From Sulfurivirga caldicuralii (lineage in GTDB: Bacteria > Pseudomonadota > Gammaproteobacteria > Thiomicrospirales > Thiomicrospiraceae), in the NCBI RefSeq assembly GCF_900141795.1, contig NZ_FSRE01000001.1:372001-436000 (forward strand): DNA of 64,000 nt. The letters run 5' to 3'. Shown here in pieces: positions 23,369-56,877 of the stretch. The notes under the pieces were generated by a model. The model worked only from the letters and a program-made list of their open reading frames with translations, was not told where the DNA came from and made no database searches. Numbering within the stretch: position 1 is the stretch's first letter; each line of letters starts with the position of its first letter. Both the position numbers and the translations under genes were made by a program.

Positions 23369-24531
23369 ACCTGCGCGCCGTGTGGACACTGAATCGCATC
23401 GAACGCTATCTGGGGCGCACGGTGGTCGCCTATACGCTCGGCGTGCTCGCCGTGCTGCTGGTGGTGCTGGGCTTTGTGGAGCTGAGCATTCAGCTGGGCA
23501 AGCTCAACGACAGCTACACGCTGGAAAAGGGCGTGCTGTATACGCTGCTGAAGCTGCCTGTGTATGGCTATGAGGTGTTTCCGGTGGCATTGCTGATTGG
23601 CGCGCTCATGGGGCTGGGTGCGCTGGCAAACCGCAGCGAACTGATCGTGATCCGCGCGGCAGGCTGGCCGGTATGGCGCATTTTCGCCGGTGTGCTCAAG
23701 TCGGTGCTGCTGTTTGCCCTGGTGATGGTGGCGCTGGGGGAATGGGTTGCGCCACCCAGCGAGGCGCTGGCGAAAAAGCTGCGTGCGGAAGCGCTGCACA
23801 AGGACTATTCCATCGGCTCTGACAACGGCGTGTGGTTGCGCCAGCGTCTGGGCGGCAAGCCGGCCATGGTGCATGTGCGCACGGTGGTGAATGCGCAGCT
23901 GCTGGCCGGTGTGGAGCTTTTTGTCATGGAAAAGAACCGGTTGGCGCGCTATGTGGCCGCACCACGGGCACGCTGGGATGCTGAAAAGGGTGCCTGGCGG
24001 CTGGAGAGGGCAAAAAGTCGCCAGATTACGGCGCAAAACCGCCTTGTAGACGGCACGCTGCAACCTGCCTTTTCGGTGCGATCCGAAAAAGTCGGGGACC
24101 CCCTTGTCCCGCTGGTGCTCGAGCCGGAGACGCTGACAGTGCTGCAGGTGGATACGCGCTATATGGGCATTCGCGACTTGATGGGTTATATCGATTTTCT
24201 GCACGCCAATGGACTGGATGTGCGGCCCTATCAGCTGGCGCTGGCGCGCAAGCTGTCATTGCCGCTGACCCTGCTGGCCATGCTGGCGATCGTGTTCCCG
24301 CTGGTGTTCGGATCCATTCGGCAGGTGAGCATGGGGCAGCGCATTTTTGTGGGCGTGCTCATCGGGCTGGGCTTTCATTTCGCCAATCAGCTGTTGGGCA
24401 ATCTGGCGCTGGCGTATGGCCTGCCCATCTGGCTGGGTGCTGTGGCGCCTTCATTGATCCTGCTTGCGCTGGCGATGTGGGGGTTTGCGCGTCTGGATCG
24501 GCCGTGGAAACAACGGAGAAAACTTGCGTGA
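23365..24531 (+). CDS. lptG: LPS export ABC permease LptG
   Basis: The 388-residue partner of LptF has three helices, a jellyroll domain and three more helices. Seen are [47 protein letters not shown], and the late [21 protein letters not shown]. The start is GTG at 23365, overlapping the lptF stop. Residues E241-L247 (EKVGDPL) are encoded by a copy of the dispersed 18-bp repeat and fall in the jellyroll domain, next to a surface-loop-like stretch. The stop codon overlaps the arsB start by one base. Confidence 0.95.
24086..24103 (+). repeat. Dispersed 18-bp repeat, copy 4 (inside lptG)
   Basis: AAAAAGTCGGGGACCCCC lies in frame inside lptG, preceded by a G so that the codons read E-K-V-G-D-P-L. 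It is oriented along the gene and in the same reading frame as the copies in murE and in the Nudix gene. Confidence 0.9.
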
Positions 24532-25838
24532 TGGCACTGTTAATTTTCATTGTGACGCTTGTTCTGGTGATCTGGCAGCCGCGCGGGCTGGGCATTGGCA
24601 CCAGTGCCTCGCTGGGTGCTGCTGTGGCGCTGATGTCCGGTGTGGTGGACTGGCAGGATATTCCCATTGTCTGGGACATCGTGTGGGATGCCACCTTTAC
24701 CTTTGTGGCGCTGATCATTATTTCGCTGCTGCTGGATGAGGCAGGCTTTTTCCGCTGGACAGCGATGCACGTGGCCCGCTGGGGACGTGGCAACGGCCAC
24801 CGACTGTTTGTGCTGGTGGTGCTTCTGGGCGCACTGATCAGCGCGGTATTTGCCAATGATGGCGCGGCGCTGCTGCTCACACCGATCGTGCTGGCCATTC
24901 TGTTGCGGCTGGGCATCAGTCATGCCGGGGCGTTTGCATTTGTCATTGCCACCGGCTTTATTGCGGATACGGCAAGTCTTCCCCTGGTGATTTCCAACCT
25001 GGTAAACATTGTCAGTGCCAACTATTTCGGTGTGGGCTTTGACCGCTATGCGCAGGTTATGGTGCCGGTCAATCTGGTCTCGATTGCGGCTACACTACTG
25101 GTGCTATGGCTCTATTTCCGCCATGAAATTCCGGATTACGATATGACCAGTCTGGAAGACCCGGCGCGCAGTATTCATGATCCACTGGTGTTCAGGGCGG
25201 CGTTTCCATTGCTGGCGTTGCTGCTGGTGACGCTGTTCGTCACCGCTGCAATGGAGGTTCAGCTGCCCACCTCCCTGTTTGCCGGCACTACGGCACTGAT
25301 TTTTCTGGCGTTGGCAGGGCGCTGGCACAGAGGTGGGCAGGGGGCGGTCATCCCGGTGCGCATGACCCTAAAGCTGGCGCCCTGGCAGATCGTGATTTTC
25401 AGTCTGGGCATGTATCTGGTTGTGTATGGGCTGCACAAGGCTGGACTGACATTGCTGTTGAGCGACTGGCTGACCCGGTTGGAAGCACACGGGCTGGTGG
25501 CAAGCAGCGTGGGCACGGGGGTACTCAGTGCGTTGCTGTCCGCCGTTATGAACAATATGCCCATGGTGCTGGTGGGCGTTTTGGCTATCGATCATGCGCA
25601 GGTATCGGAACTGACCCGCGAGCTGATGATGTATGCCAATGTTATCGGCTGTGATCTGGGGCCGAAATTCACGCCCATCGGCAGTCTGGCGACTCTGCTG
25701 TGGCTGCACGTGCTGGCGCGCAAGGGCGAGGTCATCAGCTGGGGACAGTACATGAAGGTGGGGCTGATCCTTACACCGCCGGTATTGCTGGCAACCCTGC
25801 TGGCGCTGGCATGGTGGCTGCCAGTTGTCAGTGCCTGA
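24531..25838 (+). CDS. arsB: Arsenite efflux permease ArsB
   Basis: This 435-residue, ~12-helix membrane protein is very close to classical ArsB. Diagnostic stretches are [95 protein letters not shown] and [20 protein letters not shown]. It extrudes arsenite and antimonite using the proton gradient. The ATG at 24531 shares a base with the lptG stop, so it appears to be translated as the third gene of lptF-lptG-arsB, far from arsR. A strong terminator follows. Confidence 0.96.
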
Positions 25839-25877
25839 TGGCAATGCCCTCGCTGCGTCAGGATGCCAGCGGGCATG

Positions 25878-25908
25878 AAAAAAGCCGTCCAGATGGGACG
25901 GCTTTTTT
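25878..25908. terminator. Bidirectional terminator between arsB and purD
   Basis: AAAAAAGCCGTCC-AGAT-GGGACGGCTTTTTT serves both convergent units. Confidence 0.92.
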
Positions 25909-25931
25909 ATGGCTGGCGTGAAACAAGGGGG

Positions 25932-27230
25932 TTATTGCTGGCCCTGTTCCCGTGCAATGGCGCGGTGACCGATGTCGGTGCGGTGATATTCGTCCGGCCA
26001 GTGGATTTTGGCCACCGCTTCATAGGCCTTGCGCTGCGCCTCGGAAACGGTGTCACCCAGTGCGGTGACACACAGCACGCGTCCGCCATTGGTGAGCACC
26101 TTGCCCTCGTCGGACAGTTTTGTGCCCGCGTGGAAGACCTTCACGTCAGGCAGCTGAGCCGCATCCTCCAGTCCCTCGATCACATCGCCCTTGCGGTAGC
26201 TGTCGGGATAGCCGCCGGCGGCCATGACTACACCCAGCGCCGCGCGCGGATCCCACCGGGTTTCGTGCTGGTCCAGCGTGCCGTCGAAAGCAGCTTCGAT
26301 CAGTTCGATCAGGTCAGACTGCATGCGCATCATGATAGGCTGGGTTTCGGGGTCGCCGAAGCGGCAGTTGTACTCCAGCACCTTGGGCGTGCCATCCTCG
26401 GCAATCATCAGGCCGGCATACAGAAAGCCGGTGTAGGGCGCGCCTTCGGCTGCCATGCCGCGCAGGGTGGGCCAGATGACTTCGTTCATGATGCGTTCAT
26501 GGATTTCAGGCGTCACAACCGGGGCGGGAGAGTAGGCGCCCATGCCGCCGGTGTTGGGACCGGTGTCGCCGTTGTCGCGCGCCTTGTGGTCCTGGCTGGT
26601 GGCCATGGCGATGACGTGCTCGCCATCGGCCATGACAATAAAGCTGGCCTCTTCACCGCTCAGAAATTCCTCAATGACCACGCGGGAGCCGGCGTCGCCG
26701 AACTTGTTGCCGGCGAGCATGTCTTCTACCGCGGCGATGGCTTCGTCTTGCGTCTGCGCCAGAATCACGCCCTTGCCGGCGGCCAGACCATCGGCCTTGA
26801 CCACGATGGGTGCGCCCTTCTCGCGGATATAGGCGGTGGCATCAGCGATGTCGGTGAAGACGCCGTACGCAGCAGTGGGAATGTTGTATTTGGCAAGGAA
26901 GTCCTTGGTGAACGCCTTGGAGCCTTCCAGCTGCGCGGCCTTCTGCGTGGGGCCGAAGCACTTGAGCCCGGCGGCCTGAAAGGCATCCACCACGCCCAGC
27001 ACCAGCGGGGCCTCGGGGCCGACGATAGTCAGGTCGATGGCATTGTCCCGTGCGAACTTCACCAGCCCGTCGATATCTGTTGCCTCAATGGCCACGTTTT
27101 CCATGTTGGGTTCCAGTGCGGTGCCGGCGTTGCCCGGCGCCACATAGACCGTATCCACTTTCGGGGATTGCGCCGTTTTCCACGCCAGCGCATGTTCGCG
27201 GCCGCCGCCGCCAATGACGAGTACTTTCAT
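25932..27230 (-). CDS. purD: Phosphoribosylamine-glycine ligase
   Basis: The 432-residue ATP-grasp enzyme forms glycinamide ribonucleotide. Recognised are KVLVIGGGGREHALAWK at the N-terminus, TIVGPEAPLVLGVVD, the ATP-grasp loop VKADGLAAGKGVILA and LEYNCRFGDPETQPIMMRM. It is the last gene of the unit that includes purH and fis, 12 bp after purH, and ends at the terminator shared with arsB. Confidence 0.97.
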   Translation of the reverse strand: MKVLVIGGGGREHALAWKTAQSPKVDTVYVAPGNAGTALEPNMENVAIEATDIDGLVKFARDNAIDLTIVGPEAPLVLGVVDAFQAAGLKCFGPTQKAAQLEGSKAFTKDFLAKYNIPTAAYGVFTDIADATAYIREKGAPIVVKADGLAAGKGVILAQTQDEAIAAVEDMLAGNKFGDAGSRVVIEEFLSGEEASFIVMADGEHVIAMATSQDHKARDNGDTGPNTGGMGAYSPAPVVTPEIHERIMNEVIWPTLRGMAAEGAPYTGFLYAGLMIAEDGTPKVLEYNCRFGDPETQPIMMRMQSDLIELIEAAFDGTLDQHETRWDPRAALGVVMAAGGYPDSYRKGDVIEGLEDAAQLPDVKVFHAGTKLSDEGKVLTNGGRVLCVTALGDTVSEAQRKAYEAVAKIHWPDEYHRTDIGHRAIAREQGQQ

Positions 27231-27242
27231 GCCCGTGTCTCC

Positions 27243-28808
<1,566 letters not shown>

Positions 28809-28810
28809 GG

Positions 28811-29068
28811 TCACTCCTGAATGTGGGTCAGTTGGTAATAGGTGATTTTCTTGAGCAGGGTGTTGCGGTTGATGCCGAGAATGCGTGCCGCGTGGGTGCG
28901 GTTGCCACCGGTGCGCTGCAGGACGACGCGCAGCAGGGGGGGCTCCACCTGCTCGAGCACGGTTTTGTACAGGCGGGTCATGTCCTCTTCGCCCATTGCC
29001 TCGAAATAGGCGCGCACGGCCTGTTCGACGGCGTCGCTGAGGGAAATGGGCTCACAAGGCGAAGGCAT
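28811..29068 (-). CDS. fis: Nucleoid protein Fis
   Basis: The 85-residue DNA-bending protein regulates rRNA promoters, recombination and supercoiling. The C-terminal helix-turn-helix is [21 protein letters not shown], preceded by [19 protein letters not shown], both standard for Fis. ATG 29068 overlaps dusB by 17 nt, reproducing the classic dusB-fis operon; a longer in-frame start lies inside dusB. It is somewhat shorter than the 98-residue E. coli protein at its N-terminus. Confidence 0.95.
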
Positions 29069-30032
29069 GGCTGTATGTCTGTTCGATCCAGTCAAGTTGG
29101 GCCTGAGCATGGCTCAGACGGACAAAGGTGTTGCGAAACGTTTCGCCATTGGGCAGGTGGCGGGCATACCAGCCCGCATGCTTGCGTGCCAGACGTACCC
29201 CTGTCGTTTCACCGTAATAGGCGTGCAGTTCGCGCACATGCCGGTGCAGGGTGGCGACACGCTCCTCAAGGCTGGGCGGGATCCACTCCTCTTCGGTGAG
29301 GGCAGCGCGTATTTCGCCAAAGATCCACGGGTTGCCAAAACTGGCGCGTCCGACCATGACCCCTGCTGCACCGGTGTATTTTAATACATGGCGGGCCTTG
29401 TCGCCGCTGTCGATGTCGCCATTGGCAAGCACCGGTATGGTTAGACGCTGGGCGATTTCGGCGAGGGTATCGTATTCTGCCTCACCCTGAAAGCGCTGGG
29501 ATCGGGTGCGCCCGTGGATGGTGACCAGGGCAAGACCACTTTCCTGAGCAATCCAGGCCAGTTCGGGCGCATTGCGGTGGCCCTCGTCGGTGCCGGTGCG
29601 CATCTTGACGGTGACCGGGACCGGTACGGCCGCCACCACCGCCTCGAAAATGGCCGCCACACGTGCCGGGTCGCTCATTAAGGCAGAGCCAGCTGCCACA
29701 TTGCACACCTTTTTGGCCGGGCAGCCCAGATTGAGATCGATGATATCCGCGCCCTGATCCACGTGCCAGCGTGCGGCATCCGCCAGCAGCTGTGGATCAT
29801 GCCCCAGCAGTTGAACGGCGTGGGGAGCAGGCTCGGCAGAATCGGCCCGACGGGTGAGGGATTTTCTGTGGTTGCGCAGGTCGGGTTTGCTGTGGGTCAT
29901 TTCTGCTACGGCATAGCCTGCACCCTGTTCGCGGCAGAGTGTGCGAAACACCCTGTCCGTCACGCCTGCCATGGGCGCCAGTGCAAGGTTGTTGGGCAGG
30001 CGCCATGACCCGATCTGCAGCGGTTTGAGCAC
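29052..30032 (-). CDS. dusB: tRNA-dihydrouridine synthase DusB
   Basis: The FMN-dependent TIM-barrel enzyme (326 residues) reduces uridine in the tRNA D-loop. Features are LAPMAGVTDRVFRTLCREQG, DLNLGCPAKKVCNVAAGSAL with the catalytic Cys, VTVKMRTG, and GAAGVMVGRASFGNPWIF. The start is GTG at 30032, 7 bp after dolP. It is followed by fis with a 17-nt overlap. Confidence 0.96.
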   Translation of the reverse strand: MLKPLQIGSWRLPNNLALAPMAGVTDRVFRTLCREQGAGYAVAEMTHSKPDLRNHRKSLTRRADSAEPAPHAVQLLGHDPQLLADAARWHVDQGADIIDLNLGCPAKKVCNVAAGSALMSDPARVAAIFEAVVAAVPVPVTVKMRTGTDEGHRNAPELAWIAQESGLALVTIHGRTRSQRFQGEAEYDTLAEIAQRLTIPVLANGDIDSGDKARHVLKYTGAAGVMVGRASFGNPWIFGEIRAALTEEEWIPPSLEERVATLHRHVRELHAYYGETTGVRLARKHAGWYARHLPNGETFRNTFVRLSHAQAQLDWIEQTYSHAFAL

Positions 30033-30039
30033 GGCTCGC

Positions 30040-30615
30040 TCAGAGGCGATCCATGGCGTCCACCACCTTGCGCACGCCCTTGACGCGCGAAGCGGCGGCG
30101 ATGGCTTTCTGGGCTTCCTGTTTGCTGACCAGGCCCATCAGATAAACCGTGCCGTCATAAACGGTATAGCGAATGGCCGCGCTGGTCAGTCCCTTGGTCT
30201 TGACCATTTCTGCCTTGACCTTGGCGGCGATCCAGCCATCTTCACGAGCGCGGTCCGGGGTGCGCGGGGCACCAACACGAACGCGGTTATAGACCTTACG
30301 CACATAGGGCACCTGGCGGGCCAGGCGGTTGAGCAGCTGCAGGTCGGCTTCGGTGGGGACAGCGCCGACCAGCAGCATCTTGTGGTTGTAGGTCATCACC
30401 TCAATGTTGTTGACGTCCAGCCCCGCCTGGCGCATGAGCTCGATCATGCGGGCCTGCGCCTTTTCATCTTCCGTAATGGTGTCCGCGTCGCGGCGCTCGG
30501 CACCGAAATAGTAGCCCAGCGCACCGGCACCGCCTGCAAGGATGAGTGGGGCAGCACATTGGCTGAGGCCCAGTGTCAGGGCCAGCGTTACCAGAATAAG
30601 GCGCAATTTTTTCAC
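30040..30615 (-). CDS. dolP: BON-domain outer-membrane lipoprotein DolP
   Basis: The 191-residue precursor has a lipoprotein signal (KKLRLILVTLALTLGLSQCA, lipidated Cys in the lipobox LSQC) and two BON domains, which bind phospholipid surfaces. One ends near VGAVPTEADLQLLNRLARQV and the other near TVYLMGLVSKQEAQKA. DolP (YraP) maintains the outer membrane at division sites. The start is GTG at 30615 with GGAGA upstream; a longer frame lacks a sensible signal. It overlaps lpoA by 4 nt. yraN and diaA, usually between lpoA and dolP, are absent. Confidence 0.92.
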   Translation of the reverse strand: MKKLRLILVTLALTLGLSQCAAPLILAGGAGALGYYFGAERRDADTITEDEKAQARMIELMRQAGLDVNNIEVMTYNHKMLLVGAVPTEADLQLLNRLARQVPYVRKVYNRVRVGAPRTPDRAREDGWIAAKVKAEMVKTKGLTSAAIRYTVYDGTVYLMGLVSKQEAQKAIAAASRVKGVRKVVDAMDRL

Positions 30616-32051: not shown

Positions 32052-32153
32052 TACAATGTCGACCCTGTTGTTTTGCACATCATCAAGAAACCCCTGCATC
32101 GGCTGGTTAATATGCTTCAGTCGGTGCGCTGAAAAAACTGAAGGAAATTATAA

Positions 32154-33218: not shown

Positions 33219-33595
<377 letters not shown>

Positions 33596-33873: not shown

Positions 33874-33902
33874 TTGACACGTCTTTTCATCATCAATATA
33901 GT
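33874..33902 (+). promoter_or_regulatory. Sigma70 promoter of the mraZ division cluster
   Basis: A consensus TTGACA (33874-33879) and TATAGT (33897-33902) are 17 bp apart. It is the strongest-looking promoter in the window and lies 40 bp upstream of mraZ. Confidence 0.85.
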
Positions 33903-33940: not shown

Positions 33941-33941
33941 A

Positions 33942-34397: not shown

Positions 34398-34398
34398 T

Positions 34399-38686: not shown

Positions 38687-40110
38687 TGCGTACTCTGGCA
38701 GAGCTCGCTGCCTGGTGGGGCTTGGATACAGATGCGAGTGGATCGGTCTCACGGGTGGTAGCTGACAGTCGCGAGGTTCGCGCGGGTGATCTCTTTTTGG
38801 CCCTGCCGGGTGCGCACGTGCACGGCAGCCGCTTTGCCCAGCAGGCACTGCAGGCCGGTGCGGTCGCTGTGCTGAGTGACCGCCCGGTGCCGGGCCAGGA
38901 TCGGGTGCTGGTTGTACCCGATCTGGCTGCGCGCCTGGCCGAATTCGTGCGCTGGTTCTACTCGGCGCCTGATGCCAGGCTCAAGGTGGTCGGCGTGACC
39001 GGAACCAATGGCAAGAGTTCCACCGTATGGTATGCGGCGCAGATGCTCACCGCCCTCGACCATCGTGTCGGCGTCATCGGTACCCTCGGCTATGGCCTCT
39101 GGCCACGGCTGCAGGCCGGTGCCAATACGACGCCGGATGTGGTGCGCCTGTATGGCCTGCTGCATGACTTCCTCGAAGCTGGTGTGGATACGGTGCTCAT
39201 GGAAGTCTCTTCCCACGCCATTGCGATGGGCCGGATTGACGGCCTGCAGTTCGAGGGCGTGGCGCTCACGCAGATGACGCGCGATCACCTGGATTTTCAT
39301 GGCACCCTTGAGGCGTATCATGCCACCAAGGCGCGGCTGTTTATCGACTGGCCCAGCTGTTGGCAGGTGCTCAATGTGGACGATGCGCAAGGGGCCGCGC
39401 TGGTGCAGAAGGTTGCGCACCCTGTTACCTATGGCCATCACGCGGCTGACTGGCGTTGCAATGCGTTAAGTGCCGGACAAACGGGCCTGAGCGGCCGTGT
39501 AGCGCATAAAAATAAGGTTTTTGCCTGCAAAACGTCCCTGTATGGCCGCTACAACGCCGAGAATATGCTGTGCGCCAGCGCGATTGTTGAAAAAGTCGGG
39601 GACCCCCCTGTTGGACGGTGGGAAACCCTGTGGCAAATGCTTGAACCAGTGGAGGGACGCATGGAAAGGATCGCCGACAAACCGAATGTATTTATCGACT
39701 ACGCCCATACGCCGGATGCACTGGAGGCGGTATTGAACAGCCTGCGCGAACACTTTCCTGAGCGCACGCTCTGGGTCGTGTTTGGCGCGGGCGGAGGTCG
39801 CGATCAGGGCAAGCGCCCGTTGATGGGGGCGGTGGCTGATCGCCTGGCCGACCGCATCATTCTGACCAGCGACAATCCCCGCTGCGAGGATCCGGAGCAG
39901 ATCATCCATGAGATTGCGGCGGGCATCAAGACACATTCATACAAGACGTTCCCCAATCGGGCGCGCGCCATTCAAACCGCCCTGCAGTGTGCTGGGCCGG
40001 ACGATGTGGTGCTGATTGCCGGCAAGGGGCATGAAAGCTGGCAGGAATTCTGCGGCGAGCGTGTGCCCTTCAGCGACAAGGATGAGGCCCTCAAGTGGGT
40101 GAAGGGCTAA
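38686..40110 (+). CDS. murE: UDP-MurNAc-tripeptide synthetase MurE
   Basis: The 474-residue Mur ligase adds the third amino acid to the UDP-MurNAc peptide. The ATP loop is GTNGKSS from residue 106. D396-N-P-R399 is the motif that selects meso-diaminopimelate, so a DAP-type wall is expected. Residues E302-P308 (EKVGDPP) come from an in-frame copy of the dispersed 18-bp repeat, located just before the conserved VEGRMER segment, where other MurE proteins have a variable stretch. The overlap with murF is 16 nt. Confidence 0.97.
   Translation: MRTLAELAAWWGLDTDASGSVSRVVADSREVRAGDLFLALPGAHVHGSRFAQQALQAGAVAVLSDRPVPGQDRVLVVPDLAARLAEFVRWFYSAPDARLKVVGVTGTNGKSSTVWYAAQMLTALDHRVGVIGTLGYGLWPRLQAGANTTPDVVRLYGLLHDFLEAGVDTVLMEVSSHAIAMGRIDGLQFEGVALTQMTRDHLDFHGTLEAYHATKARLFIDWPSCWQVLNVDDAQGAALVQKVAHPVTYGHHAADWRCNALSAGQTGLSGRVAHKNKVFACKTSLYGRYNAENMLCASAIVEKVGDPPVGRWETLWQMLEPVEGRMERIADKPNVFIDYAHTPDALEAVLNSLREHFPERTLWVVFGAGGGRDQGKRPLMGAVADRLADRIILTSDNPRCEDPEQIIHEIAAGIKTHSYKTFPNRARAIQTALQCAGPDDVVLIAGKGHESWQEFCGERVPFSDKDEALKWVKG
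39590..39607 (+). repeat. Dispersed 18-bp repeat, copy 5 (inside murE)
   Basis: AAAAAGTCGGGGACCCCC is in frame in murE, preceded by G and followed by CT so that it reads E-K-V-G-D-P-P. Same orientation and frame as the lptG and Nudix copies. Confidence 0.9.
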
Positions 40111-48306: not shown

Positions 48307-49001
48307 AGCGGCTCACCCTGATCTGGACCCTGCTGGCGCTGCTGCTGTTCGCGGGGATCTACACCTATCTGGGTACGCAGCAGATCGAGCGGATTCGCAT
48401 CGAGGTGCAGGGGGAACACCTGTCAGCCGAGGCGCTGCGCCCGCGCGTGGAAGCATGGCATGGGGCGCGTTTCTGGTCGCTGGACCTGCAACAGGTGCGC
48501 GAGGCCGTGATCGCTGATCCTTGGGTAGCCAAGGCGCAGGCATGGCGGGTGTGGCCGCACACCCTGGTGGTGCGTGCCACGGCCGAGGTGCCGGTGGCGC
48601 GCTGGGACAATGCCGCACTGGTGGATCGTCGTGGCCACGTTTTTTACCCCCCGGAGGGGACACAGGCTTTTGCCAATCTGCTGCGGCTGGACGGCCCGGA
48701 TCCCAAGGCGGCGCCTGCACTTCTGGAACTGGCGGTGCGTCTTTCACGGCTGGCGCCGGAATGGGGATTGACACGGCTGGAGGCCGTCCCCGGCGGTTCG
48801 GTGCTGACGTACTGGTCAAAACAGCATCCGATTTGGCTGGAGCAGGCGCAGGCCGGTGTGCAACTACGGCGTCTGCAGCAGACATGGGACGCGGTGAAAC
48901 CGGCGCTGCGCCAAGCCACGGATCATATTGATTTGCGCTATAGTAATGGCTTTGTAATCAAACTGCGGAACGAGCACGATGGCATTGAGAAAACAGAGTG
49001 A
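48303..49001 (+). CDS. ftsQ: Cell division protein FtsQ
   Basis: The 232-residue bitopic protein (helix about residues 5-22) has a POTRA domain (IERIRIEVQGEHLSAEALRP) and a beta domain with PWVAKAQAWRVWPHTLVVRA, the FtsQ signature. It bridges FtsL/FtsB to the divisome. The start is GTG at 48303, overlapping the ddlB stop; the end overlaps ftsA by 23 nt. Confidence 0.93.
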   Translation: MKRLTLIWTLLALLLFAGIYTYLGTQQIERIRIEVQGEHLSAEALRPRVEAWHGARFWSLDLQQVREAVIADPWVAKAQAWRVWPHTLVVRATAEVPVARWDNAALVDRRGHVFYPPEGTQAFANLLRLDGPDPKAAPALLELAVRLSRLAPEWGLTRLEAVPGGSVLTYWSKQHPIWLEQAQAGVQLRRLQQTWDAVKPALRQATDHIDLRYSNGFVIKLRNEHDGIEKTE

Positions 49002-50217
49002 TGACGTCCTTGTCGGACTGGACATCGGCACTTCAAAAGTGGCGGCGGTCATCGCGCGCACCAAGGCGGATGGTTCACTCGAGGTGACCGGCGTCGGCGT
49101 CACGCCATCCCGCGGTTTGAAGAAAGGTGTCGTCGTGGACATCGATGCCACCACCCACGATATTCAGCATGCGGTGGAAGAGGCCGAAAAGATGGCCGGG
49201 ATCAGCGTTGACTCGGTGTTTGTGGGCATCGCTGGTGACCATATCAGGAGCACCAACTCCCACGGCATGGTGGCGGTGCGCGGCAACGAGGTCACCGAGG
49301 AGGATATCCAGCGTGTAGTGGAAGCGGCCAGCACCCGGCCGATTGCCAACACCGAGAAAGTGCTGCACGTGTTGCCGCAGAGCTTTACCATCGACGGACA
49401 GAGCGGCATTCGCCAGCCAGTGGGCATGTCGGGCGTGCGTCTGGAAGCGTGGGTGCATCTGATCACCGGCAGCGTCAGTGGCATTCAGAATCTGGTCAAG
49501 TGCGTGCAGCGCTGCGATCTGGATGTGGAAGACATTGTGCTGGAGCAGCTGGCTTCCAGCGAAGCGGTGCTGTCCGAAGACGAGCGCGAACTGGGCGTGT
49601 GCGTGGTGGACATTGGCGGTGGCACCACCGATATTGCCGTGTTTCATCAGGGCGCCATCCGCCATACGGCGGTGATTCCCGTCGCCGGCGATCAGGTCAC
49701 CAGCGATATCGCCATCGCCTTCCGCACGCCAACGCCGGAAGCGGAGCGCATCAAGTGTCGCTTCGGTGCCTGTCTGCCCACACTGGTGTCTGCCAGCGAG
49801 GAGATCGAAGTGCCCAGCGTGGGTGATCGCCCGGCGCGCTGTCTGAGCCGTCGCACCCTGGCCGAAGTAATCGAGCCTCGGTATGAAGAACTGTTTCAGC
49901 TGATTCAGGACGAACTGCGCAACAGCGGCTTCCTGGATCTGACCGCAGCCGGGGTGGTGCTGACCGGTGGCGGCAGCCGCATTGAAGGTGCGGTGGAGTT
50001 GGCCGAAGAGGTCTTCCACATGCCGGTGCGGTTGGGTGTGCCCCACAACCTGGGCTCGCTCAGCGATCAGCTGGCGGCGCCCCAGTATGCCACCACCGTA
50101 GGACTGCTGGAATATGGCCGCAAGCACCGTCCGCGCAATGGTTCCACACGCCTTGACATCCACAAGGCCGGCAACCTGCTGGCCCGCCTGAAAAATTGGT
50201 TCAAGAGCAGTTTCTGA
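48979..50217 (+). CDS. ftsA: Cell division actin-like protein FtsA
   Basis: An actin-fold ATPase of 412 residues that tethers FtsZ to the membrane. Present are LVGLDIGTSKVAAVIA, the 1C domain, VVDIGGGTTDIAVF, VVLTGGGSRIEGAVELAEEV and a C-terminal amphipathic membrane-targeting helix (LLARLKNWFKSSF). In most relatives ftsZ follows; here lpxC begins 64 bp downstream. Confidence 0.97.
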   Translation: MALRKQSDDVLVGLDIGTSKVAAVIARTKADGSLEVTGVGVTPSRGLKKGVVVDIDATTHDIQHAVEEAEKMAGISVDSVFVGIAGDHIRSTNSHGMVAVRGNEVTEEDIQRVVEAASTRPIANTEKVLHVLPQSFTIDGQSGIRQPVGMSGVRLEAWVHLITGSVSGIQNLVKCVQRCDLDVEDIVLEQLASSEAVLSEDERELGVCVVDIGGGTTDIAVFHQGAIRHTAVIPVAGDQVTSDIAIAFRTPTPEAERIKCRFGACLPTLVSASEEIEVPSVGDRPARCLSRRTLAEVIEPRYEELFQLIQDELRNSGFLDLTAAGVVLTGGGSRIEGAVELAEEVFHMPVRLGVPHNLGSLSDQLAAPQYATTVGLLEYGRKHRPRNGSTRLDIHKAGNLLARLKNWFKSSF

Positions 50218-50242
50218 CCGCAGACTGCAAATACCGGTGCTA

Positions 50243-50265
50243 CAATACGTCTTTAGCCTGTATTG
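50243..50265 (+). promoter_or_regulatory. Inverted repeat in the lpxC leader
   Basis: CAATAC (50243-50248) and GTATTG (50260-50265) form a 6-bp dyad; the first arm overlaps a possible -10 box TACAAT (50241-50246). It may be part of the lpxC promoter or an mRNA hairpin upstream of the GTG start. No convincing -35 was found. Confidence 0.35.
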
Positions 50266-50281
50266 AGAATCCGATTTTCCT

Positions 50282-51187
50282 GTGAATCAGCGCACCATTG
50301 CCAACCCCATCACTGCGCGGGGCGTCGGCCTGCATACCGGCCACGAAGCGCACATGACGCTGCGCCCTGCACCTGCCGACACGGGCATCGTCTTCCGCCG
50401 TACCGACCTCGATCCTGTCGTGGAAATGCCTGTTTCGCCTGAACTGGTGGGTGAAACCACCCTGTGCACCACCATCGTGCGCGACGGTGCCAAGATCGCC
50501 ACCATCGAGCATTTGATGTCGGCGCTGGCGGGTCTGGGCATCGATAACCTCTATATCGATATCGATGCGGATGAAGTGCCCATTATGGATGGCAGTGCAT
50601 CTCACTTCATTTTCCTGCTGCAGTCGGCTGGACTGAAAACCCTTGATGCCCCCAAGAAGTTCGTACGGATCAAGCGCTCGGTGCGCGTGGAAAACGACAA
50701 GGGCGGCTGGGCCGAATTCCACCCCTACGACGGTTTTCGTCTGACCTTTTCCATTGATTTCGACCATCCAGCGTTCAAGCAGACCGCCGAACGCATGACG
50801 TTGGAGTTTTCCTCTACCGCCTACTTCAAGGAAGTCAGCCGGGCGCGCACCTTTGGTTTCGTCAAGGATATCGAGACCCTGCGGCAGCACAATCTGGCGC
50901 TGGGAGCGAGTCTGGATAACGCCATTGGGCTGGATGAGAACGGCGTGATGAACGAGGGCGGCCTGCGCAATCGCGACGAGTTTGTGCGTCACAAGATTCT
51001 CGATGCGGTGGGTGACCTCTACATGCTTGGCCATCCCGTGCTGGGCGAGTTCCGCGCGCACAAGTCCGGCCATGCGCTCAACAATCAGCTGTTGCGAGCA
51101 TTGATGGCGCAGCCGGATGCCTACGAAGTGATTACCGCCACGGATTCGACCCCCATCTCATACGGCAGCAGCAAGATTGTCGTCTGA
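50282..51187 (+). CDS. lpxC: UDP-3-O-acyl-N-acetylglucosamine deacetylase LpxC
   Basis: The 301-residue zinc enzyme commits precursors to lipid A. Zinc and catalytic motifs are [43 protein letters not shown] and [15 protein letters not shown]. The start is GTG at 50282 with NQRTIANPI, equivalent to the usual KQRTLKN start. It closes the division cluster; without ftsZ it lies directly after ftsA. Confidence 0.98.
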
Positions 51188-51232
51188 ATCGGCGCCTTAA
51201 GCCGTTTCCCGCAGGAAAGCCCGGCTTGAAAA

Positions 51233-51250
51233 GGGGGTCCCCGACTTTTT
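51233..51250 (-). repeat. Dispersed 18-bp repeat, copy 6 (lpxC-dciA gap)
   Basis: This minus-strand copy of AAAAAGTCGGGGACCCCC lies between convergent lpxC and dciA. It is followed by a GCGG...CCGC short inverted repeat, as at copies 2 and 3. Confidence 0.85.
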
Positions 51251-51299
51251 GCGGGGCGCATTTTTTGGCCGCTGCAAACGCCACTGCACGCACGGCTTT

Positions 51300-51743
51300 T
51301 TAGCCCTGTTCCTTCCTTTCCCGTGCCTTGCGGGCACTGTCGGCCAGTCGCTGCAGTCGTTTTGCCAGTGCTTCGTCTTCAATCAGGCGGCTCAGGGTTT
51401 CCATCTCTTCGATAGCGCTGGCGGGCGGCAGGCTTGCCGTGCGTTTTTCCACGGGCTGGGGGCGGGGCAGGGGACTGATCTTTACCTTGCACTGTGTCAG
51501 TTTCAGATGGGGAAAGGTGCGAGCAAAGGTGTCGAGCAGCTGTGGTGCCGCGTAGCGCAGCCGTGTCGCCCATACCGCCTGTTCCACCTGCACGATGAGC
51601 GTTTCTCCATCGAGGGAGACGCCGATGACCTGCTCGGCCAGCTCATCTGGCAGGGCCGAGCGGGCGGTTTCCAGCAGGGCGCCATACAGGGCGGCCTGAT
51701 CCAGCAGGCGCTGCAGGCCGGGCTGTTCCAGCAGGGGCTTCAT
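51300..51743 (-). CDS. dciA: DciA-type replicative helicase loader (DUF721)
   Basis: This 147-residue protein matches DciA/DUF721: an N-terminal helical region, then the KH-like part VIGVSLDGETLIVQVEQAVWATRLRYAAPQLL, in which VxxAxWAxxLRxxxxxLL is the family mark. DciA loads DnaB helicase in bacteria without DnaC. A charged C-terminal tail (SARKARERKEQG) is disordered. It lies divergent from secA, the common position of DUF721 genes. Confidence 0.82.
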   Translation of the reverse strand: MKPLLEQPGLQRLLDQAALYGALLETARSALPDELAEQVIGVSLDGETLIVQVEQAVWATRLRYAAPQLLDTFARTFPHLKLTQCKVKISPLPRPQPVEKRTASLPPASAIEEMETLSRLIEDEALAKRLQRLADSARKARERKEQG

Positions 51744-51774
51744 GCCAAGGTCTCCACGGGTGATGTGGTATTAT

Positions 51775-51803
51775 TTGCAGGTTTTTTCATTCCCGGAATT
51801 ATA
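51775..51803 (+). promoter_or_regulatory. Candidate secA promoter
   Basis: TTGCAG (51775-51780) and ATTATA (51798-51803), 17 bp apart, lie 22 bp before the secA start. Both boxes deviate from consensus. Confidence 0.4.
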
Positions 51804-51825
51804 GCGGCAAGGATAGGGCCACCCC

Positions 51826-54564
51826 ATGATTAAGAAACTGTTCCGCAAAGTCATCGGCACCCGCAACGACCGTCTGCTCAAGCGCTACGGCAAGGTGGTC
51901 GAGCAGATCAACGCCCTTGAGCCCAGGATGGAAGCACTCAGCGACGCTGAGCTGCAGGCAAAGACGCCGGAATTCCGTGAGCGTCTGCAAAAGGGTGAAA
52001 CACTGGATGAGCTGTTGCCGGAAGCCTTTGCTGTCGCCCGCGAGGCGAGCAAGCGCGTGCTTGGCATGCGTCATTACGATGTCCAGCTGATCGGCGGGAT
52101 GGCATTGCACGAAGGGAAGATTGCGGAAATGCGCACCGGTGAGGGCAAGACCCTTGTCGCCACGCTGGCGGCCTACCTCAACGCGCTTTCCGGCGAAGGG
52201 GTGCATGTGGTCACCGTCAACGACTATCTGGCGCGCCGCGATGCGGAATGGATGGGGCGCCTTTACGGTTGGCTCGGTCTGGAAACGGGTGTGATCGCCA
52301 GCGGGCAGAGCTTCGAGGAGAAACGTCAGGCTTACGCGGCCGACATCACCTACGGCACCAACAATGAATTCGGTTTCGACTACCTACGCGACAACATGGT
52401 GTTCTCGCCCGATGAGCGGGTCATGCGCGGACTCAACTACGCCATTGTGGATGAGGTGGATTCCATCCTCATTGACGAGGCGCGCACGCCGCTGATCATC
52501 TCCGGCCCCGCCGAGGATCGCGCCGAAGTGTATCTGAAGATCAACGAAATCGTCCCCCATCTGGAGCGGGGTGAAGAGGACGAGGAAAGCAAGACCTCGA
52601 CCGGCGACTTCACCGTGGACGAAAAGGCCAAGAATGTTTACCTCACCGACCAGGGCCACGAAAAGGTGGAGAAGCTGCTGGTGGAAGCCGGGCTGCTGCG
52701 CGAGGGCGAGAGCCTCTATGACGCGAAGAACATTGCGCTGATGCACCATGTGAATGCTGCCCTGCGGGCGCATGTGCTGTTTGAGCGCAACAAGGATTAC
52801 ATCGTCGAGAACAACGAAATCGTCATTATCGACGAATTCACCGGGCGCAAGATGCAGGGGCGGCGCTGGTCCGAGGGGCTGCATCAGGCGGTGGAAGCCA
52901 AGGAAGGCGTACCCATTCAGGCCGAAAGCCAGACGCTGGCCTCCATTACTTTCCAGAACTTCTTCCGCCTGTACAAGAAGCTGTCCGGCATGACCGGCAC
53001 CGCCGACACCGAGGCGGGCGAATTCCTGCAGACCTACGGATTGGAAGTGGTGCAGATTCCGCCCAACAAGCCGACCATCCGCAAGGATCATCCCGATCTT
53101 GTCTTCCTGGATATGCCCAGCAAGCTGGAAGCGGTGGTGCAGGAAGTCAAGGAGAGCCATGAAAAGGGCCAGCCGGTACTGGTGGGCACCGCCTCCATCG
53201 AAATGTCCGAAGTGGTCTCGACCCTGCTGAAGAAGGCGGGAATTGCGCACCATGTGCTCAATGCGAAGCACCACGAACAGGAAGCGAAGATCATCGCCAA
53301 TGCCGGCCGGCCCGGCGCCGTGACCGTGGCCACCAACATGGCGGGTCGCGGTACCGACATCATGCTCGGCGGTAACCTGGAGCAGGAGCTGGCCGAGCTG
53401 GGTGAAGATGCCACGCCGGAGCAGATCGAACAGGTCAAGGCGGACTGGCAGAAACGCAACGAGCAAGCCAAGGCCGCCGGCGGCCTCAAGGTGATCGGTA
53501 CCGAACGCCACGAATCCCGCCGCATCGACAACCAGCTGCGCGGCCGTTCCGGCCGTCAGGGCGATCCGGGCGAGAGCCGCTTCTATCTGTCGCTGGATGA
53601 CGATCTGCTGCGCATGTTCATGTCCGACCGCATCAAGGCGATGATGGAAAAGATGGGCATGCGCCCAGGCGAACCCATCGAGCACCGCATGGTCACCAAC
53701 GCCATCGAAAAGGCGCAGAAAAAGGTGGAGGCGCGCAACCAGGATATCCGCGCGCAGCTACTCAAGTTCGACGATGTGGCCAACGACCAGCGCAAGGTGG
53801 TTTATGCGCAGCGTAATGAACTGCTGGAAGCGGATGACATTTCCGACATCATTCGCGACATGCGCGCTGAAGTGGTGAACGAAACCATCGATGAGTTCAT
53901 TCCGCCCGGCAGTCTGGACGAGCAGTGGGATCTGGACGGTCTGGAAACGGCGCTCAAAGAACGTTTTGCCGTCGAGCTGCCGGTACGCCAGTGGGTGGAG
54001 GAAGACAAGTCGTTGCACGAAAAGGCGCTGCGCGACAAGATCGTTCAAGCAGTGGAAGCCGCCTATCAGGACAAGGTTGCGCAGGTGGGCGAAGAGACCA
54101 TGCGCGCCTTCGAAAAGGCGGTGCTGCTGCAGACCATGGACAGCCTGTGGCGCGAGCATCTGGCGGCCATGGACTACCTGCGCCAAGGCATCCACCTGCG
54201 CGGTTATGCGCAGAAGGATCCCTTCCAGGAGTACAAGCGTGAAGCCTTTGAAATGTTCAAGGGCTATCTGGAAAACGTCAAGCGCGACACCATTGATGTG
54301 CTCTCCAAGGTGACCGTGGCCACAGATGATGACGTGGCCGCCATGGAGGCGAAGCAGCAGGCGCAGCTGATGGATCTGGAGGTCAGCCACGATGAATTCT
54401 CGCTGATGGAACAGACGCCTGGGGAGTTGCCGCAGCCCGCGTTGAACGAGGTGGCTTCCGCGCAGACGCCCTATCGCCGCGAAACCCCCAAGGTGGGCCG
54501 CAACGATCCGTGTCCCTGCGGTTCCGGCAAGAAATACAAGCAGTGCTGTGGCAAGCTGCAGTAA
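51826..54564 (+). CDS. secA: Protein translocase ATPase SecA
   Basis: The 912-residue motor drives preproteins through SecYEG. It contains Walker [33 protein letters not shown], the preprotein cross-linking region, [29 protein letters not shown] and the helical scaffold. The C-terminal zinc finger [15 protein letters not shown], which binds SecB, is intact. Length is typical of proteobacteria. argJ starts 9 bp downstream. Confidence 0.98.
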
Positions 54565-54573
54565 GGAGTAACC

Positions 54574-55800
54574 ATGGCTGTCGGACTGAGTGATCAATTG
54601 CCTCCTATTCACCCCGTGGCGGACTGCTGGCTGGGCTCGACGGCCGCCGGCATCAAGAAAAACGGTAACCCGGATCTGGTCATCATGCAGCTGGGTGAAA
54701 ACGCGCGCACCGCTGCCGTGTTTACCCGCAATGCCTTTTGTGCTGCCCCCGTGACAGTGGCGAAAGCGCACCTGGCCGTTACCCAGCCGCGGGCGCTGGT
54801 GATCAACAGTGGCAACGCCAATGCCGGTACCGGCGAGCAGGGGCTGGCCGATGCCCGTACCACCTGCCGCTGGGTGGCGGAGGAGCTGGGCCTGGAGCCC
54901 GAGCAGGTCCTGCCGTTTTCCACCGGTGTCATTGGCGAAAATCTGCCCATGGGCAGGCTGCAACAGGGCATCCCGGCCGCGTGTGCTGCCCTCAATATCG
55001 AAGGCTGGCAGCAGGCGTGCCGCGGCATCATGACCACCGATACCGTGCCTAAGGTGGTCAGCGAGCGCATTATTCTGCCGTCCGGTGCCGAGATTGTCAT
55101 TACTGGCATGACCAAGGGCTCCGGCATGATCCACCCCAATATGGCCACCATGCTCGCCTACGTAGCCACTGATGCACGCGTCAGCCAGCCGGTGCTGCAG
55201 CAGGTGCTGCAGCAGACCACCGAGCGCTCCTTCAACCGCATTACCGTGGACGGCGATACCTCCACCAACGATGCCTGCACGCTCAGCGCTACCGGTGTGG
55301 CGGACATGGCTGAAATCGACGCCCTGGACAGCGCCGATGGCGAAGTGTTTCTGCGCGCCATGGACGATGTGATGCGGCGTCTGGCACAGATGATCGTGCG
55401 CGACGGCGAGGGCGCCACCAAGTTCGTAACCGTGCAGGTGGACGAGGGCGCCACGGCAGACGACAGCCTTAAAGTGGCCTTTACCATCGCCCATTCACCA
55501 CTGGTAAAGACGGCGCTGTTTGCCTCCGATCCCAACTGGGGCCGCATTCTGGCCGCGGTGGGGCGTGCCGGGGTGGAAAACCTCAATATTGATGCCGTGC
55601 GCATCTGGCTGGATGATGTCTGCATTGTGCGCGATGGGGGGCGTGCGCCCGACTACACCGAAGAAGCGGGCCAGCGGGTCATGAATCAGGATGAAATCAC
55701 CATCCGCGTTGCACTGGGCATGGGCAGCGCACAGGAGACCGTGTGGACCACGGATCTCTCCTACGATTACGTCAAGATCAATGCCGAATACCGTACTTGA
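54574..55800 (+). CDS. argJ: Bifunctional ornithine acetyltransferase / N-acetylglutamate synthase
   Basis: The 408-residue enzyme recycles the acetyl group in arginine synthesis. It is a self-cleaving precursor: the nucleophile is T192 in GMIHPNMATMLAY. Other motifs are NSGNANAGTGEQG, FSTGVIGENLPM, RITVDGDTSTNDA and FASDPNWGRILAA. It follows secA by 9 bp with GGAG upstream of the ATG. Confidence 0.97.
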   Translation: MAVGLSDQLPPIHPVADCWLGSTAAGIKKNGNPDLVIMQLGENARTAAVFTRNAFCAAPVTVAKAHLAVTQPRALVINSGNANAGTGEQGLADARTTCRWVAEELGLEPEQVLPFSTGVIGENLPMGRLQQGIPAACAALNIEGWQQACRGIMTTDTVPKVVSERIILPSGAEIVITGMTKGSGMIHPNMATMLAYVATDARVSQPVLQQVLQQTTERSFNRITVDGDTSTNDACTLSATGVADMAEIDALDSADGEVFLRAMDDVMRRLAQMIVRDGEGATKFVTVQVDEGATADDSLKVAFTIAHSPLVKTALFASDPNWGRILAAVGRAGVENLNIDAVRIWLDDVCIVRDGGRAPDYTEEAGQRVMNQDEITIRVALGMGSAQETVWTTDLSYDYVKINAEYRT

Positions 55801-55905
55801 ACGGCCTGAAGCTGCGCATGGGCTGCCATCTTTCTCGGCAGGCCCTTTCCATGCCGGTTAAGCGCACTTTTACCGTTTTGGACGAACCTGTCGAGGCCCG
55901 CATCC

Positions 55906-56877
55906 GTGGCTGAAAAAAACGCATTTGAAAAAGTCGGGGACCCCCCTGTCGAGGTGGCGGTTGGTGTGCTGCGCCAGGGCGATCAGGTGCTGCTGGAGCA
56001 GCGGTCTGTCGGCCAGCATCAGGGCGGCAAGTGGGCCTTTCCCGGTGGCAAGATCGAGTCGGGTGAGACGCCCGAGGTAGCCTTGCGCCGTGAATTTCAT
56101 GAGGAAACCGGCCTGGATGTAAAAGACTGGAGCCCGTTGATTACCATCCCATGGGATTATGGCGATCGGCAGGTGCGTCTGCATGTGTTCGTGAGCTCGC
56201 AGTTTGCTGGCACGCCTCAGCAACGGGAAGGGCAGCGGCTGACATGGTGGCCTTTAAGTCAGCTTGATCAGCGGGACTTTCCCGCCGCCAATCGCGGCAT
56301 TGTGCGTGCGCTGCGGCTGCCGCTGCGCTACGCCATTACCGGGCGCTGGCACACGCCCAACCAGCTGTATGATCAGGTCGCAGGGCTATTGTCCAAGGGG
56401 TTGCGTCTCATACAGTGGCGCGCGCCCGATCTGCCGCGGGGGGATTATCTGCAGCACGCCAAACAGCTGCAGCATCTTGTGGCGGGGCACGGCGGGCAGC
56501 TGATCCTCAACGGTGATCCTTCGCTGCTGATGCTGTTTCCTCAGGCGGCCGGCCTGCAGCTGCCCAGCCGCTATTTGCCGTATCTGACCACCCGGCCCGT
56601 GCCGCCCGAGCGGCTGCTGGGGATTTCCGTGCATAACGAAAACGAAATGGCTCAGGCGCTGAAGCTGGCGCCGGATTTCCTTGTCCTGTCTCCGGTTCAG
56701 GCTACCTCCAGTCATCCGGATCAGGCGCCGCTGGGGTGGGAGCGCTTTGCAGAGCTTGTTGCGCAAAGTCCGCTGCCGGTGTATGCGCTGGGCGGAGTCG
56801 GCGATGCCGAACTTGCGCAGGCCCGTGAAGCCGGCGCACAGGGCATTGCCGCTATTTCGTCGTGGTGGAATCGATAA
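55906..56877 (+). CDS. Nudix hydrolase fused to a thiamine-phosphate-synthase-like domain
   Basis: The 323-residue fusion has a MutT-type Nudix box GGKIESGETPEVALRREF..EETG (residues about 48-70), which suits hydrolysis of oxidised dGTP. After about residue 150 comes a ThiE-like TIM barrel (LRLIQWRAPDL, LLGISVHNENEMAQA, VYALGGVGDAELAQA). The fusion is known from gammaproteobacteria and is often linked to argJ or secA. The start is GTG at 55906. Codons 8-14 (EKVGDPP) are a copy of the dispersed repeat, so the native start may have been replaced; GTG 55954 is an alternative. Roles of the ThiE part are unproven. Confidence 0.88.
   Translation: MAEKNAFEKVGDPPVEVAVGVLRQGDQVLLEQRSVGQHQGGKWAFPGGKIESGETPEVALRREFHEETGLDVKDWSPLITIPWDYGDRQVRLHVFVSSQFAGTPQQREGQRLTWWPLSQLDQRDFPAANRGIVRALRLPLRYAITGRWHTPNQLYDQVAGLLSKGLRLIQWRAPDLPRGDYLQHAKQLQHLVAGHGGQLILNGDPSLLMLFPQAAGLQLPSRYLPYLTTRPVPPERLLGISVHNENEMAQALKLAPDFLVLSPVQATSSHPDQAPLGWERFAELVAQSPLPVYALGGVGDAELAQAREAGAQGIAAISSWWNR
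55928..55945 (+). repeat. Dispersed 18-bp repeat, copy 7 (start of the Nudix gene)
   Basis: AAAAAGTCGGGGACCCCC is preceded by G and begins at codon 8 of the predicted frame, reading E-K-V-G-D-P-P. Same orientation and frame as the copies in lptG and murE. Confidence 0.9.

What the first reader, a model, noticed from the sequence alone, without database searches (positions are those of the whole stretch)
24085..55946. The repeat inside three essential or conserved genes always reads EKVGDP in the same frame
In lptG (codons 241-247), murE (302-308) and the Nudix-ThiE gene (8-14) the repeat has the same orientation and the same reading frame, giving EKVGDPP or EKVGDPL. None of the six frames contains a stop, so frame choice is not forced by stops. 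Three of three in one of six possible readings suggests selection on the peptide or a directional insertion mechanism. The element thus adds short peptides to proteins, recalling the protein-coding repeats of Rickettsia (RPE).
Basis: partly seen in the sequence, partly recalled or inferred. Interest (0 to 1): 0.7.

Follow-up and report, generated by a model that had tools for sequence, protein, structure and literature searches.

The report
Species-specific DNA signal with phased arm
A short DNA signal, repeated about every 12,000 letters across one bacterium's chromosome and spelled differently in its relatives, sits inside conserved genes and shapes both the local DNA helix pattern and the proteins encoded there; it looks most like a self-recognition tag for DNA uptake, but that is not proven.

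Summary
The three EKVGDP copies are real, but they are the visible end of a larger DNA element. The 15-base core occurs 138 times in the 1.67-Mb genome. By my own gene caller, 74 copies lie between genes and 64 inside them: 37 read (E/K/Q)KVGDP, 7 KKSGTP, 10 GVPDF, 8 GGPRLF, 2 GSPTF, 0 KSRGPP. "Always one frame" is false genome-wide, though the preference is strong. Frame use follows how ordinary each peptide is in the proteome, and alignments show no constant-length insertion.

Beside the invariant core lies an arm of AT-rich tracts every ~10.3 bp, mainly on one side, reaching ~126 bp, as strong in genes as between them. On average it imprints a 3.43-residue rhythm on the encoded proteins. 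Congeners carry other "dialects"; in murE of the three species seen, each dialect occupies the same codons. Other genera of the order have further dialects, including the palindrome ACCAGGCCTGGT.

Best reading: a sequence-specific recognition site that works like a DNA uptake sequence. Against it: low density, and congeners without detected ComEC or secretin keep the motif. Main rival: a DNA-wrapping (gyrase or nucleoid) site. Recognition protein and function are untested.

The parts
24086..24102 (+). core AAAAAGTCGGGGACCCC in lptG, frame EKVGDPL (codons 241-247)
23961..24085 (+). phased AT arm of the lptG copy (coding); measured part is -130..-26 from the 12-mer
   Evidence: amplitude 0.114, 99.6th percentile of coding controls
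39590..39606 (+). core in murE, frame EKVGDPP (codons 302-308); G001 and G002 have their own dialect at the same codons
39465..39589 (+). phased AT arm of the murE copy (coding)
   Evidence: amplitude 0.187, percentile printed as 1.000 among 3000 coding controls
55928..55944 (+). core in the Nudix-ThiE gene, frame EKVGDPP (codons 8-14)
55803..55927 (+). phased AT arm of the Nudix-ThiE copy, mostly upstream of the gene
   Evidence: amplitude 0.098, 97.8th percentile of coding controls
8237..8253 (-). core, intergenic, upstream of an MFS transporter gene (7041-8222 -)
   Evidence: arm (8254-8378) not distinct, 73.7th percentile
12806..12822 (-). core, intergenic by my gene caller, between an AhpC/TSA-type gene and an AIR carboxylase gene
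12823..12947 (-). phased AT arm of the 12806 copy
   Evidence: amplitude 0.180 (95th percentile of intergenic controls 0.095)
17510..17526 (-). core, intergenic, after an ABC-transporter ATPase gene (16435-17505 +); a G002 row of copies maps 152-358 bp away
17527..17651 (-). phased AT arm of the 17510 copy
   Evidence: amplitude 0.180 (95th percentile of intergenic controls 0.095)
51234..51250 (-). core, intergenic
51251..51375 (-). arm of the 51234 copy, weakly phased
   Evidence: amplitude 0.088, 95.8th percentile of coding controls but below the intergenic 95th percentile (0.095)

Best explanation
The repeat is a chromosome-wide, sequence-specific DNA recognition site in a lineage-specific dialect. 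It works like the uptake sequences (DUS/USS) of Neisseriaceae and Pasteurellaceae, with an exceptionally long phased arm. Shown here: an exact core; AT tracts at helical spacing, mainly on one side; no strand bias along the longest contig; placement between genes and at position-conserved spots inside genes without a constant insertion; dialects that differ between related species. Inferred: a surface receptor on a type IV pilus-like machine binds the core, the phased AT arm bends or stiffens the DNA so that it can be kinked into the outer-membrane pore, and repeated uptake plus recombination keeps the core exact and spreads it (molecular drive). Protein function then filters which reading frame survives, which gives EKVGDP.
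For: 138 exact copies, 0 for the reversed pattern; on C7 (595 kb) 48 exact and 2 one-mismatch copies of the 17-mer. Spacing more even than random: CV 0.65 against 0.97, 0 of 5000 (131 gaps of C4-C7). Strands 24:24 on C7, which has one GC-skew sign. Intergenic 74 of 138; convergent gaps favoured (31 of 74), divergent avoided (4 of 74). AT tracts mainly on the A-tract side; USS are described as stiff and slightly bent at their AT tracts with a strictly required inner core (PMC7811141, passages). Dialects: 137 copies in G002 and 30 in G003 of AAANNNGGGAGACCCCR; 284, 283 and 337 in G010, G011 and G016 of AATCTRCCAGGYTGGG; ACCAGGCCTGGT at 84-718 copies in 27 of 62 genomes. G002/G003 sites that lie inside a gene aligned to C7: 3 of 3 fall on a G000 site, one of them its one-mismatch copy. 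G000 has ComEC, a prepilin peptidase and an MshL-like secretin. USS/DUS also favour one orientation in reading frames (PMC2346458, abstract and section 3); DUS have dialects and permissive intragenic sites (PMC3630211, passages).
Against: Density is 1 per ~11.7 kb against ~1 per kb for USS (PMC7811141). G002 and G003 have no ComEC match, and G001-G003 no PilQ-model match, although that model did ring weakly on G000's MshL-like secretin; yet they keep the motif and, in the 31 G002/G003 sites examined, a phased wave. They are draft genomes 84-99% complete. G000's pilus set is thin: 3 pilin-type matches. Inverted pairs, common for DUS, are two of 47 bp on C7 among 138 copies. No long wave at 60 sites of G010/G011/G016. 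The exact form does not dominate in the G002, G008 and G010 samples. C7 alone is not significantly even (454 of 5000 nulls as even). In one DUS genome (S. muelleri) no reading-frame preference was obvious (PMC3630211), and PMC2346458 cites work that found USS apparently random along the genome.
Confidence: 0.5

Rival explanations
1. The element is a DNA-wrapping site: a strong gyrase site or the nucleation site of a nucleoid protein, spaced about every 12 kb to manage supercoiling. The core positions the complex and the phased arm is wrapped.
For: Wave over about ten turns, power 0.64 at 10.5 bp (best 0.73 at 10.3) against a jittered-control maximum of 0.31 at 10.5. The wave is also seen in G002/G003, there on both sides, where competence genes were not found and the core is looser in the G002 sample (0, 1, 2 mismatches: 7, 6, 5). 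G002/G003 copies lie in head-to-tail rows; 19 de-duplicated spacings of 60-130 bp cluster at 93, 102-104, 111-113 and 121-123 bp (R 0.84 at 10.3 bp, best 0.89 at 9.65; spacings within a row are not independent). Enriched between convergent genes, depleted between divergent ones. The E. coli gyrase motif is a phased GC/AT pattern, period 10.75 (PMC6379681, passages). The far-arm profile of G000 puts the annotated Mu gyrase cut at rank 9 of 23570.
Against: The E. coli motif is symmetric with arms to -63 and +66; the G000 wave is mainly one-sided, reaches ~126 bp, and beyond the two near tracts peaks at 65-75 bp upstream. The other four profile versions rank the Mu cut 54th, 1415th, 1552nd and 2067th. 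An invariant 17-bp core and different dialects within one genus are not expected of gyrase. No long wave in G010/G011/G016.
Confidence: 0.33
2. A small mobile element (REP, MITE or Rickettsia-type RPE) that inserts copies, including in-frame peptides, into genes.
For: Many copies with an identical core; rows of copies in G002/G003. Two aligned coding sites do show extra residues in G000 (+8 and +4).
Against: No constant insertion in the aligned coding sites. Flanks differ from copy to copy apart from AT phasing and weakly favoured bases. Congeners have a different sequence at the same codons. I did not search for a RAYT or other transposase.
Confidence: 0.06
3. A recombination or segregation signal read in one direction (Chi or KOPS type).
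For: Chromosome-wide, short, lineage-specific.
Against: Strands 24:24 on C7, which has a single GC-skew sign.
Confidence: 0.03

Closest known systems
USS of Pasteurellaceae (Haemophilus influenzae)
   Same: Strictly required inner core plus AT tracts (PMC7811141, passages); both orientations; intergenic and intragenic; one orientation favoured in reading frames (PMC2346458, abstract and section 3).
   Different: About ten times sparser; about ten AT tracts where the USS has two; core exact over 17 bp in G000; uptake untested; congeners without detected ComEC or secretin keep it.
DUS dialects of Neisseriaceae
   Same: Related species carry different spellings; intragenic copies at permissive places (PMC3630211, passages).
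   Different: No evident relation in sequence; several dialects here are palindromes or near-palindromes; inverted pairs are few in G000.
Strong gyrase sites (phage Mu SGS, E. coli gyrase motif)
   Same: Helically phased AT/GC pattern beside a core (PMC6379681, passages).
   Different: Mainly one-sided in G000, longer, with an exact core and species dialects; Mu comparison inconclusive.
Rickettsia palindromic elements (recalled, no call)
   Same: Repeat found in frame inside conserved genes.
   Different: RPE are inserted sequences; here no constant insertion was found in the 12 of 64 sites that could be aligned.

Membership tests
DNA uptake sequence (DUS/USS) | short motif in large excess over chance | tested here: met
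   138 copies, reversed control 0
DNA uptake sequence (DUS/USS) | no orientation bias along the chromosome | tested here: met
   24:24 on C7 with one skew sign
DNA uptake sequence (DUS/USS) | lineage dialects | tested here: met
DNA uptake sequence (DUS/USS) | sharp excess of the exact form over one-mismatch forms | tested here: inconclusive
   exact:one-mismatch G000 48:2, G061 24:2, but G002 7:6, G010 4:9 and G008 12:20 with one fixed consensus each; palindromes are counted on both strands
DNA uptake sequence (DUS/USS) | density near 1 per kb | tested here: not met
   mean gap 11.7 kb; USS spacing ~1,000 bp (PMC7811141)
DNA uptake sequence (DUS/USS) | carrier has competence machinery | tested here: inconclusive
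   ComEC match in 55 of 60 genomes including G000; none in G002, G003, G050, G036, G035; no PilQ-model match in G001-G003
DNA uptake sequence (DUS/USS) | motif raises DNA uptake | not testable with these tools
   needs an uptake assay
strong gyrase site | phased AT/GC arms | tested here: met
   mainly one side in G000; both sides in G002/G003
strong gyrase site | symmetric arms ending near 66 bp from the cut (E. coli motif) | tested here: not met
   mainly one-sided to ~126 bp in G000; description from PMC6379681
strong gyrase site | gyrase binding or cleavage | not testable with these tools
   needs cleavage mapping
inserted element (REP/MITE/RPE) | fixed-length insertion relative to orthologues | tested here: not met
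   12 of 64 coding sites alignable, no constant length
inserted element (REP/MITE/RPE) | cognate transposase (e.g. RAYT) | not tested
   no search made
Chi/KOPS-type oriented signal | orientation follows replication | tested here: not met

The most novel reading that the evidence does not exclude
A bacterial order carries a fast-evolving DNA recognition code whose unknown reader changes specificity between species, and which in one genus recruits a DNA-wrapping arm of about ten helical turns. This structural code is laid over the protein code: averaged over 28 coding copies, AT-rich-codon residues recur every 3.43 residues, the DNA helical repeat, for about 28 residues (-36 to -9) upstream of KVGDP.
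Probability: 0.35. Interest if true: 0.9.

Novelty: new variant of a known kind. Interest (0 to 1): 0.72.

Why it matters
If it is an uptake signal, it adds another bacterial group with uptake dialects and a far stronger case for DNA shape in uptake than the two AT tracts of the USS; because dialects differ within genera, it offers a natural experiment on how such codes switch. If it is a wrapping site, it would be a genome-wide, sequence-defined map of where a chromosome is wrapped. In both cases it shows a DNA-structure signal imprinting a helical-repeat rhythm on proteins, which could mislead protein evolution and structure inference.

Tried and rejected
Insertion of a peptide (rejected). 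Chi/KOPS-like oriented signal (rejected). Transcription terminator: in tandem gaps the orientation shows no preference, 21 same and 18 opposite, and many copies are coding. Naming the organism: the genome-contig scan for a 20-mer returned single matches in a Lachnospiraceae and a Geobacteraceae record (the tool says records of the own genome may be left out); RuBisCO, CsoS2 and BMC genes on C7 point to a carbon-fixing autotroph, but the name stays unknown (look-up of one guessed family name failed). A literature search for six motif strings gave 53 papers; the 20 listed showed no report of such a bacterial motif. Thiomicrospira plus uptake sequence gave 0 papers; Hydrogenovibrio/Thiomicrorhabdus with competence terms gave nothing on those genera among the 10 listed of 1,620. 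Both genus choices are guesses of mine. K-mer screens are not sensitive: G001 (61 kb) and G003 (39 kb) showed no motif by k-mers although patterns then found one in both; G005 (14 kb), G024 (40 kb) and G030 (20 kb) showed none.

Caveats: gene calls come from my own dicodon gene finder; intergenic counts and starts may be off, and one 'coding' copy sits in a 33-residue ORF. In one search, C5_205394 (+7; 35% identity) and C6_361332 (+5, twice; 27-32%) are probably paralogues and are left out of the stated range, and the Nudix-ThiE alignment starts inside the motif, so it tests only its end. Several G002/G003 loci were fetched because they hold the motif, so position conservation was counted only against C7, which was not chosen by its sites; two more cases (C6_174945 with L174, C5_21174 with L188) are chosen by motif on both sides. 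The spacing list was typed by hand and holds some pairs twice; one search repeats it without them, but the place listing was cut. The spacing test used the 100 listed of 138 sites; one search repeats it. A draft of this report put the copy at C6:305908 in the prepilin peptidase gene; rechecking shows that it lies in a cytidylyltransferase gene.
Full report
Observation. The 17-mer AAAAAGTCGGGGACCCC occurs 7 times in the window against 0.08 expected by chance. The other four lie on the - strand between genes.

Genome-wide. The window is C7:372001-436000 of a 1,673,283-base genome of 7 contigs. The 15-mer AAAGTCGGGGACCCC occurs 138 times (76 forward, 62 reverse), and the reversed control pattern 0 times. 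The sequence I then held contains 138 copies of the 12-mer GTCGGGGACCCC, all preceded by AAA. I called genes with a dicodon model of my own. Genes cover 93% of C7, yet 74 of 138 copies are intergenic. Of 64 coding copies, 37 read KVGDP (24 EKVGDP, 9 KKVGDP, 4 QKVGDP), 7 KKSGTP, 0 KSRGPP, 10 GVPDF, 8 GGPRLF and 2 GSPTF. The claim of one frame only is therefore false, but the preference is strong (37 of 64 against 1/6, p = 1e-13; same against opposite strand 44:20, p = 0.004).

Why that frame. Stops explain little: within -42..+18 of 74 intergenic copies, a stop occurs in the KVGDP frame in 19, in the KSRGPP frame in 41 and in the other four in 21-26. Frame use follows how often the frame's tripeptides occur in the proteome of C7: mean counts 41.0, 37.4, 19.2, 37.2, 35.8, 23.0 for 37, 7, 0, 10, 8, 2 copies; Spearman 0.83, p = 0.04, n = 6. 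So protein tolerance acts as a filter.

Not a constant insertion. For 12 of 64 coding sites the congener sequence held gave an alignment through the site. Net length differences around the site are 0 in murE (G001 and G002), -1 to -3 in lptG, and -6, -2, -1, 0, 0, +4 and +8 in seven others of at least 40% identity; the Nudix-ThiE alignment starts inside the motif and shows no gap from there; two sites matched only probable paralogues. In murE, G002 reads EKWGRPH from its own motif, and G001 has AAAAACAGGGGGACCCCC, at the same codons.

The real element. AT content around all 138 sites shows a wave on the A-tract side. Smoothed maxima lie near -18, -33, -44, -54, -65, -75, -85, -95, -106, -115 and -126; power is 0.64 at 10.5 bp (best 0.73 at 10.3), against a jittered control with mean 0.055 and maximum 0.31. 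Downstream there are weak maxima near +15, +28 and +37 and power 0.148 (control maximum 0.142); beyond 130 bp on either side nothing stands out. Site by site, 45 of 64 coding and 38 of 74 intergenic arms exceed the 95th percentile of control windows, with phase coherence 0.83 and 0.77; downstream 4 of 64 and 2 of 74 do so, with coherence 0.32 and 0.27. The murE arm in the window has amplitude 0.187 (coding control mean 0.044), while the 8237 arm is ordinary and the 51234 arm weak. The wave marks proteins too: upstream of the 28 of 37 KVGDP copies with enough sequence, residues K, N, I, F, Y, M recur with period 3.43 residues over positions -36 to -9 (power 0.259; 10,000 random-anchor sets: mean 0.006, maximum 0.057).

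Distribution. Across 131 gaps of contigs C4-C7 the spacing is more even than random (CV 0.65 against 0.97, 0 of 5000); C7 alone is not significant (454 of 5000). A first test on the 100 listed sites agreed. On C7, which has one GC-skew sign, strands are 24:24. Convergent gaps hold 31 of 74 intergenic copies and divergent gaps 4, against 45 and 55 of 242 C7 gaps of 60 bp or more (p = 3e-6 and 5e-5). A 63.6-kb stretch without an exact copy (C7:196311-259929) holds carboxysome and RuBisCO genes and, judged by eye from the translations, ribosomal-protein and RNA-polymerase operons. The exact 17-mer outnumbers its one-mismatch forms 48:2 on C7. Two inverted pairs 47 bp apart occur on C7.

Dialects. 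Among the 62 held genomes of the order the G000 15-mer is found only in G000. G002 has 137 and G003 30 copies of AAANNNGGGAGACCCCR, with 1 chance-like copy in G010. 31 G002/G003 sites show a similar wave (upstream power 0.43, period 10.4), there also downstream, perhaps in part because copies lie in rows. De-duplicated spacings of 60-130 bp in these rows (19) are 93, 102-104, 111-113 and 121-123 bp. G001 has a looser AAAAANNGGGGGACCCC-like form (94 raw overlapping matches of a generic pattern, reversed control 5). In other genera the excess motif is ACCAGGCCTGGT, present in 41 of 62 genomes and at 84-718 copies in 27 of them, with zero or near-zero counts in some sister species. In genus g3, G010, G011 and G016 instead have 284, 283 and 337 copies of AATCTRCCAGGYTGGG, with AT tracts near -10 and -20 but no long wave (60 sites). 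Sites inside genes stay in place: of 31 G002/G003 sites, 16 had an aligned C7 segment within 600 bp; 3 lay inside the aligned gene, and all 3 fall on a G000 site, two exact (1 and 11 bp off) and one about 10 bp from the one-mismatch copy. Of the other 13, none lies within 150 bp of an exact G000 site; the nearest, 152 bp off, belongs to the G002 row beside the window's 17510 copy (chance of being within 150 bp 2.4%).

Mechanism. Core strictness, AT tracts, both orientations, favoured reading frame and dialects are features described for uptake sequences: PMC7811141 (passages), PMC2346458 (abstract and section 3), PMC1939737 (passages, which cites even spacing and a sharp drop from exact to one-mismatch forms), PMC3630211 (passages). 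Not all agrees: PMC2346458 cites a finding of apparently random USS placement, and PMC3630211 saw no frame preference in one species. ComEC is found in 55 of 60 genomes searched; G000 also has a prepilin peptidase gene, with an intergenic copy of the motif 69 bp before its start (C6:309831), and an MshL-like secretin just under its cut-off (248.9 of 250.2 bits). Against uptake: ten-fold lower density; G002 and G003 without a ComEC match; G001-G003 without a PilQ-model match; few pilins. The looser core of G001 and G002 would fit decay after loss of uptake, but their persisting rows and wave (seen in G002/G003) would not. The wrapping rival rests on the wave and on the rows. Its gyrase form is weakly backed by Mu: the far-arm profile ranks the annotated cut 9th of 23,570, the other four versions 54th to 2067th, and the E. 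coli motif is symmetric and shorter (PMC6379681, passages). I put the uptake-like reading at 0.5 and wrapping at 0.33. Membership in the DUS/USS family is not claimed, since density was not met and uptake is untested.

Noticed in passing
G002 contig C8, about 154-680 (locus L148): Row of motif copies with three successive 103-bp gaps and one of 205 bp whose units seem to alternate between two spacer types; similar rows elsewhere in G002 and G003.
   Followed up: partly
C7:196311-259929 (loci L040-L043): 63.6 kb without any exact motif copy: RuBisCO, CsoS2 and BMC carboxysome genes followed by ribosomal-protein and rpo operons.
   Followed up: partly
C6:305908 and C6:309831 (locus L118): One motif copy lies inside a cytidylyltransferase (KdsB-like) gene, read as GVPDFL; another lies 69 bp before the start of the prepilin peptidase gene.
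   Followed up: no
window 18524-18628 and 19606-19710: Two 105-nt direct repeats 72% alike, perhaps paralogous gene segments.
   Followed up: no
C7:2-6193 and C7:8631-12044 (locus L031): Very long predicted proteins; the second has an RTX repeat match and a pilin-type start.
   Followed up: no
C6:480159 and C6:480510 (locus L129): Two copies of the motif 351 bp apart in one 758-residue ORF, both read as EKVGDP.
   Followed up: no
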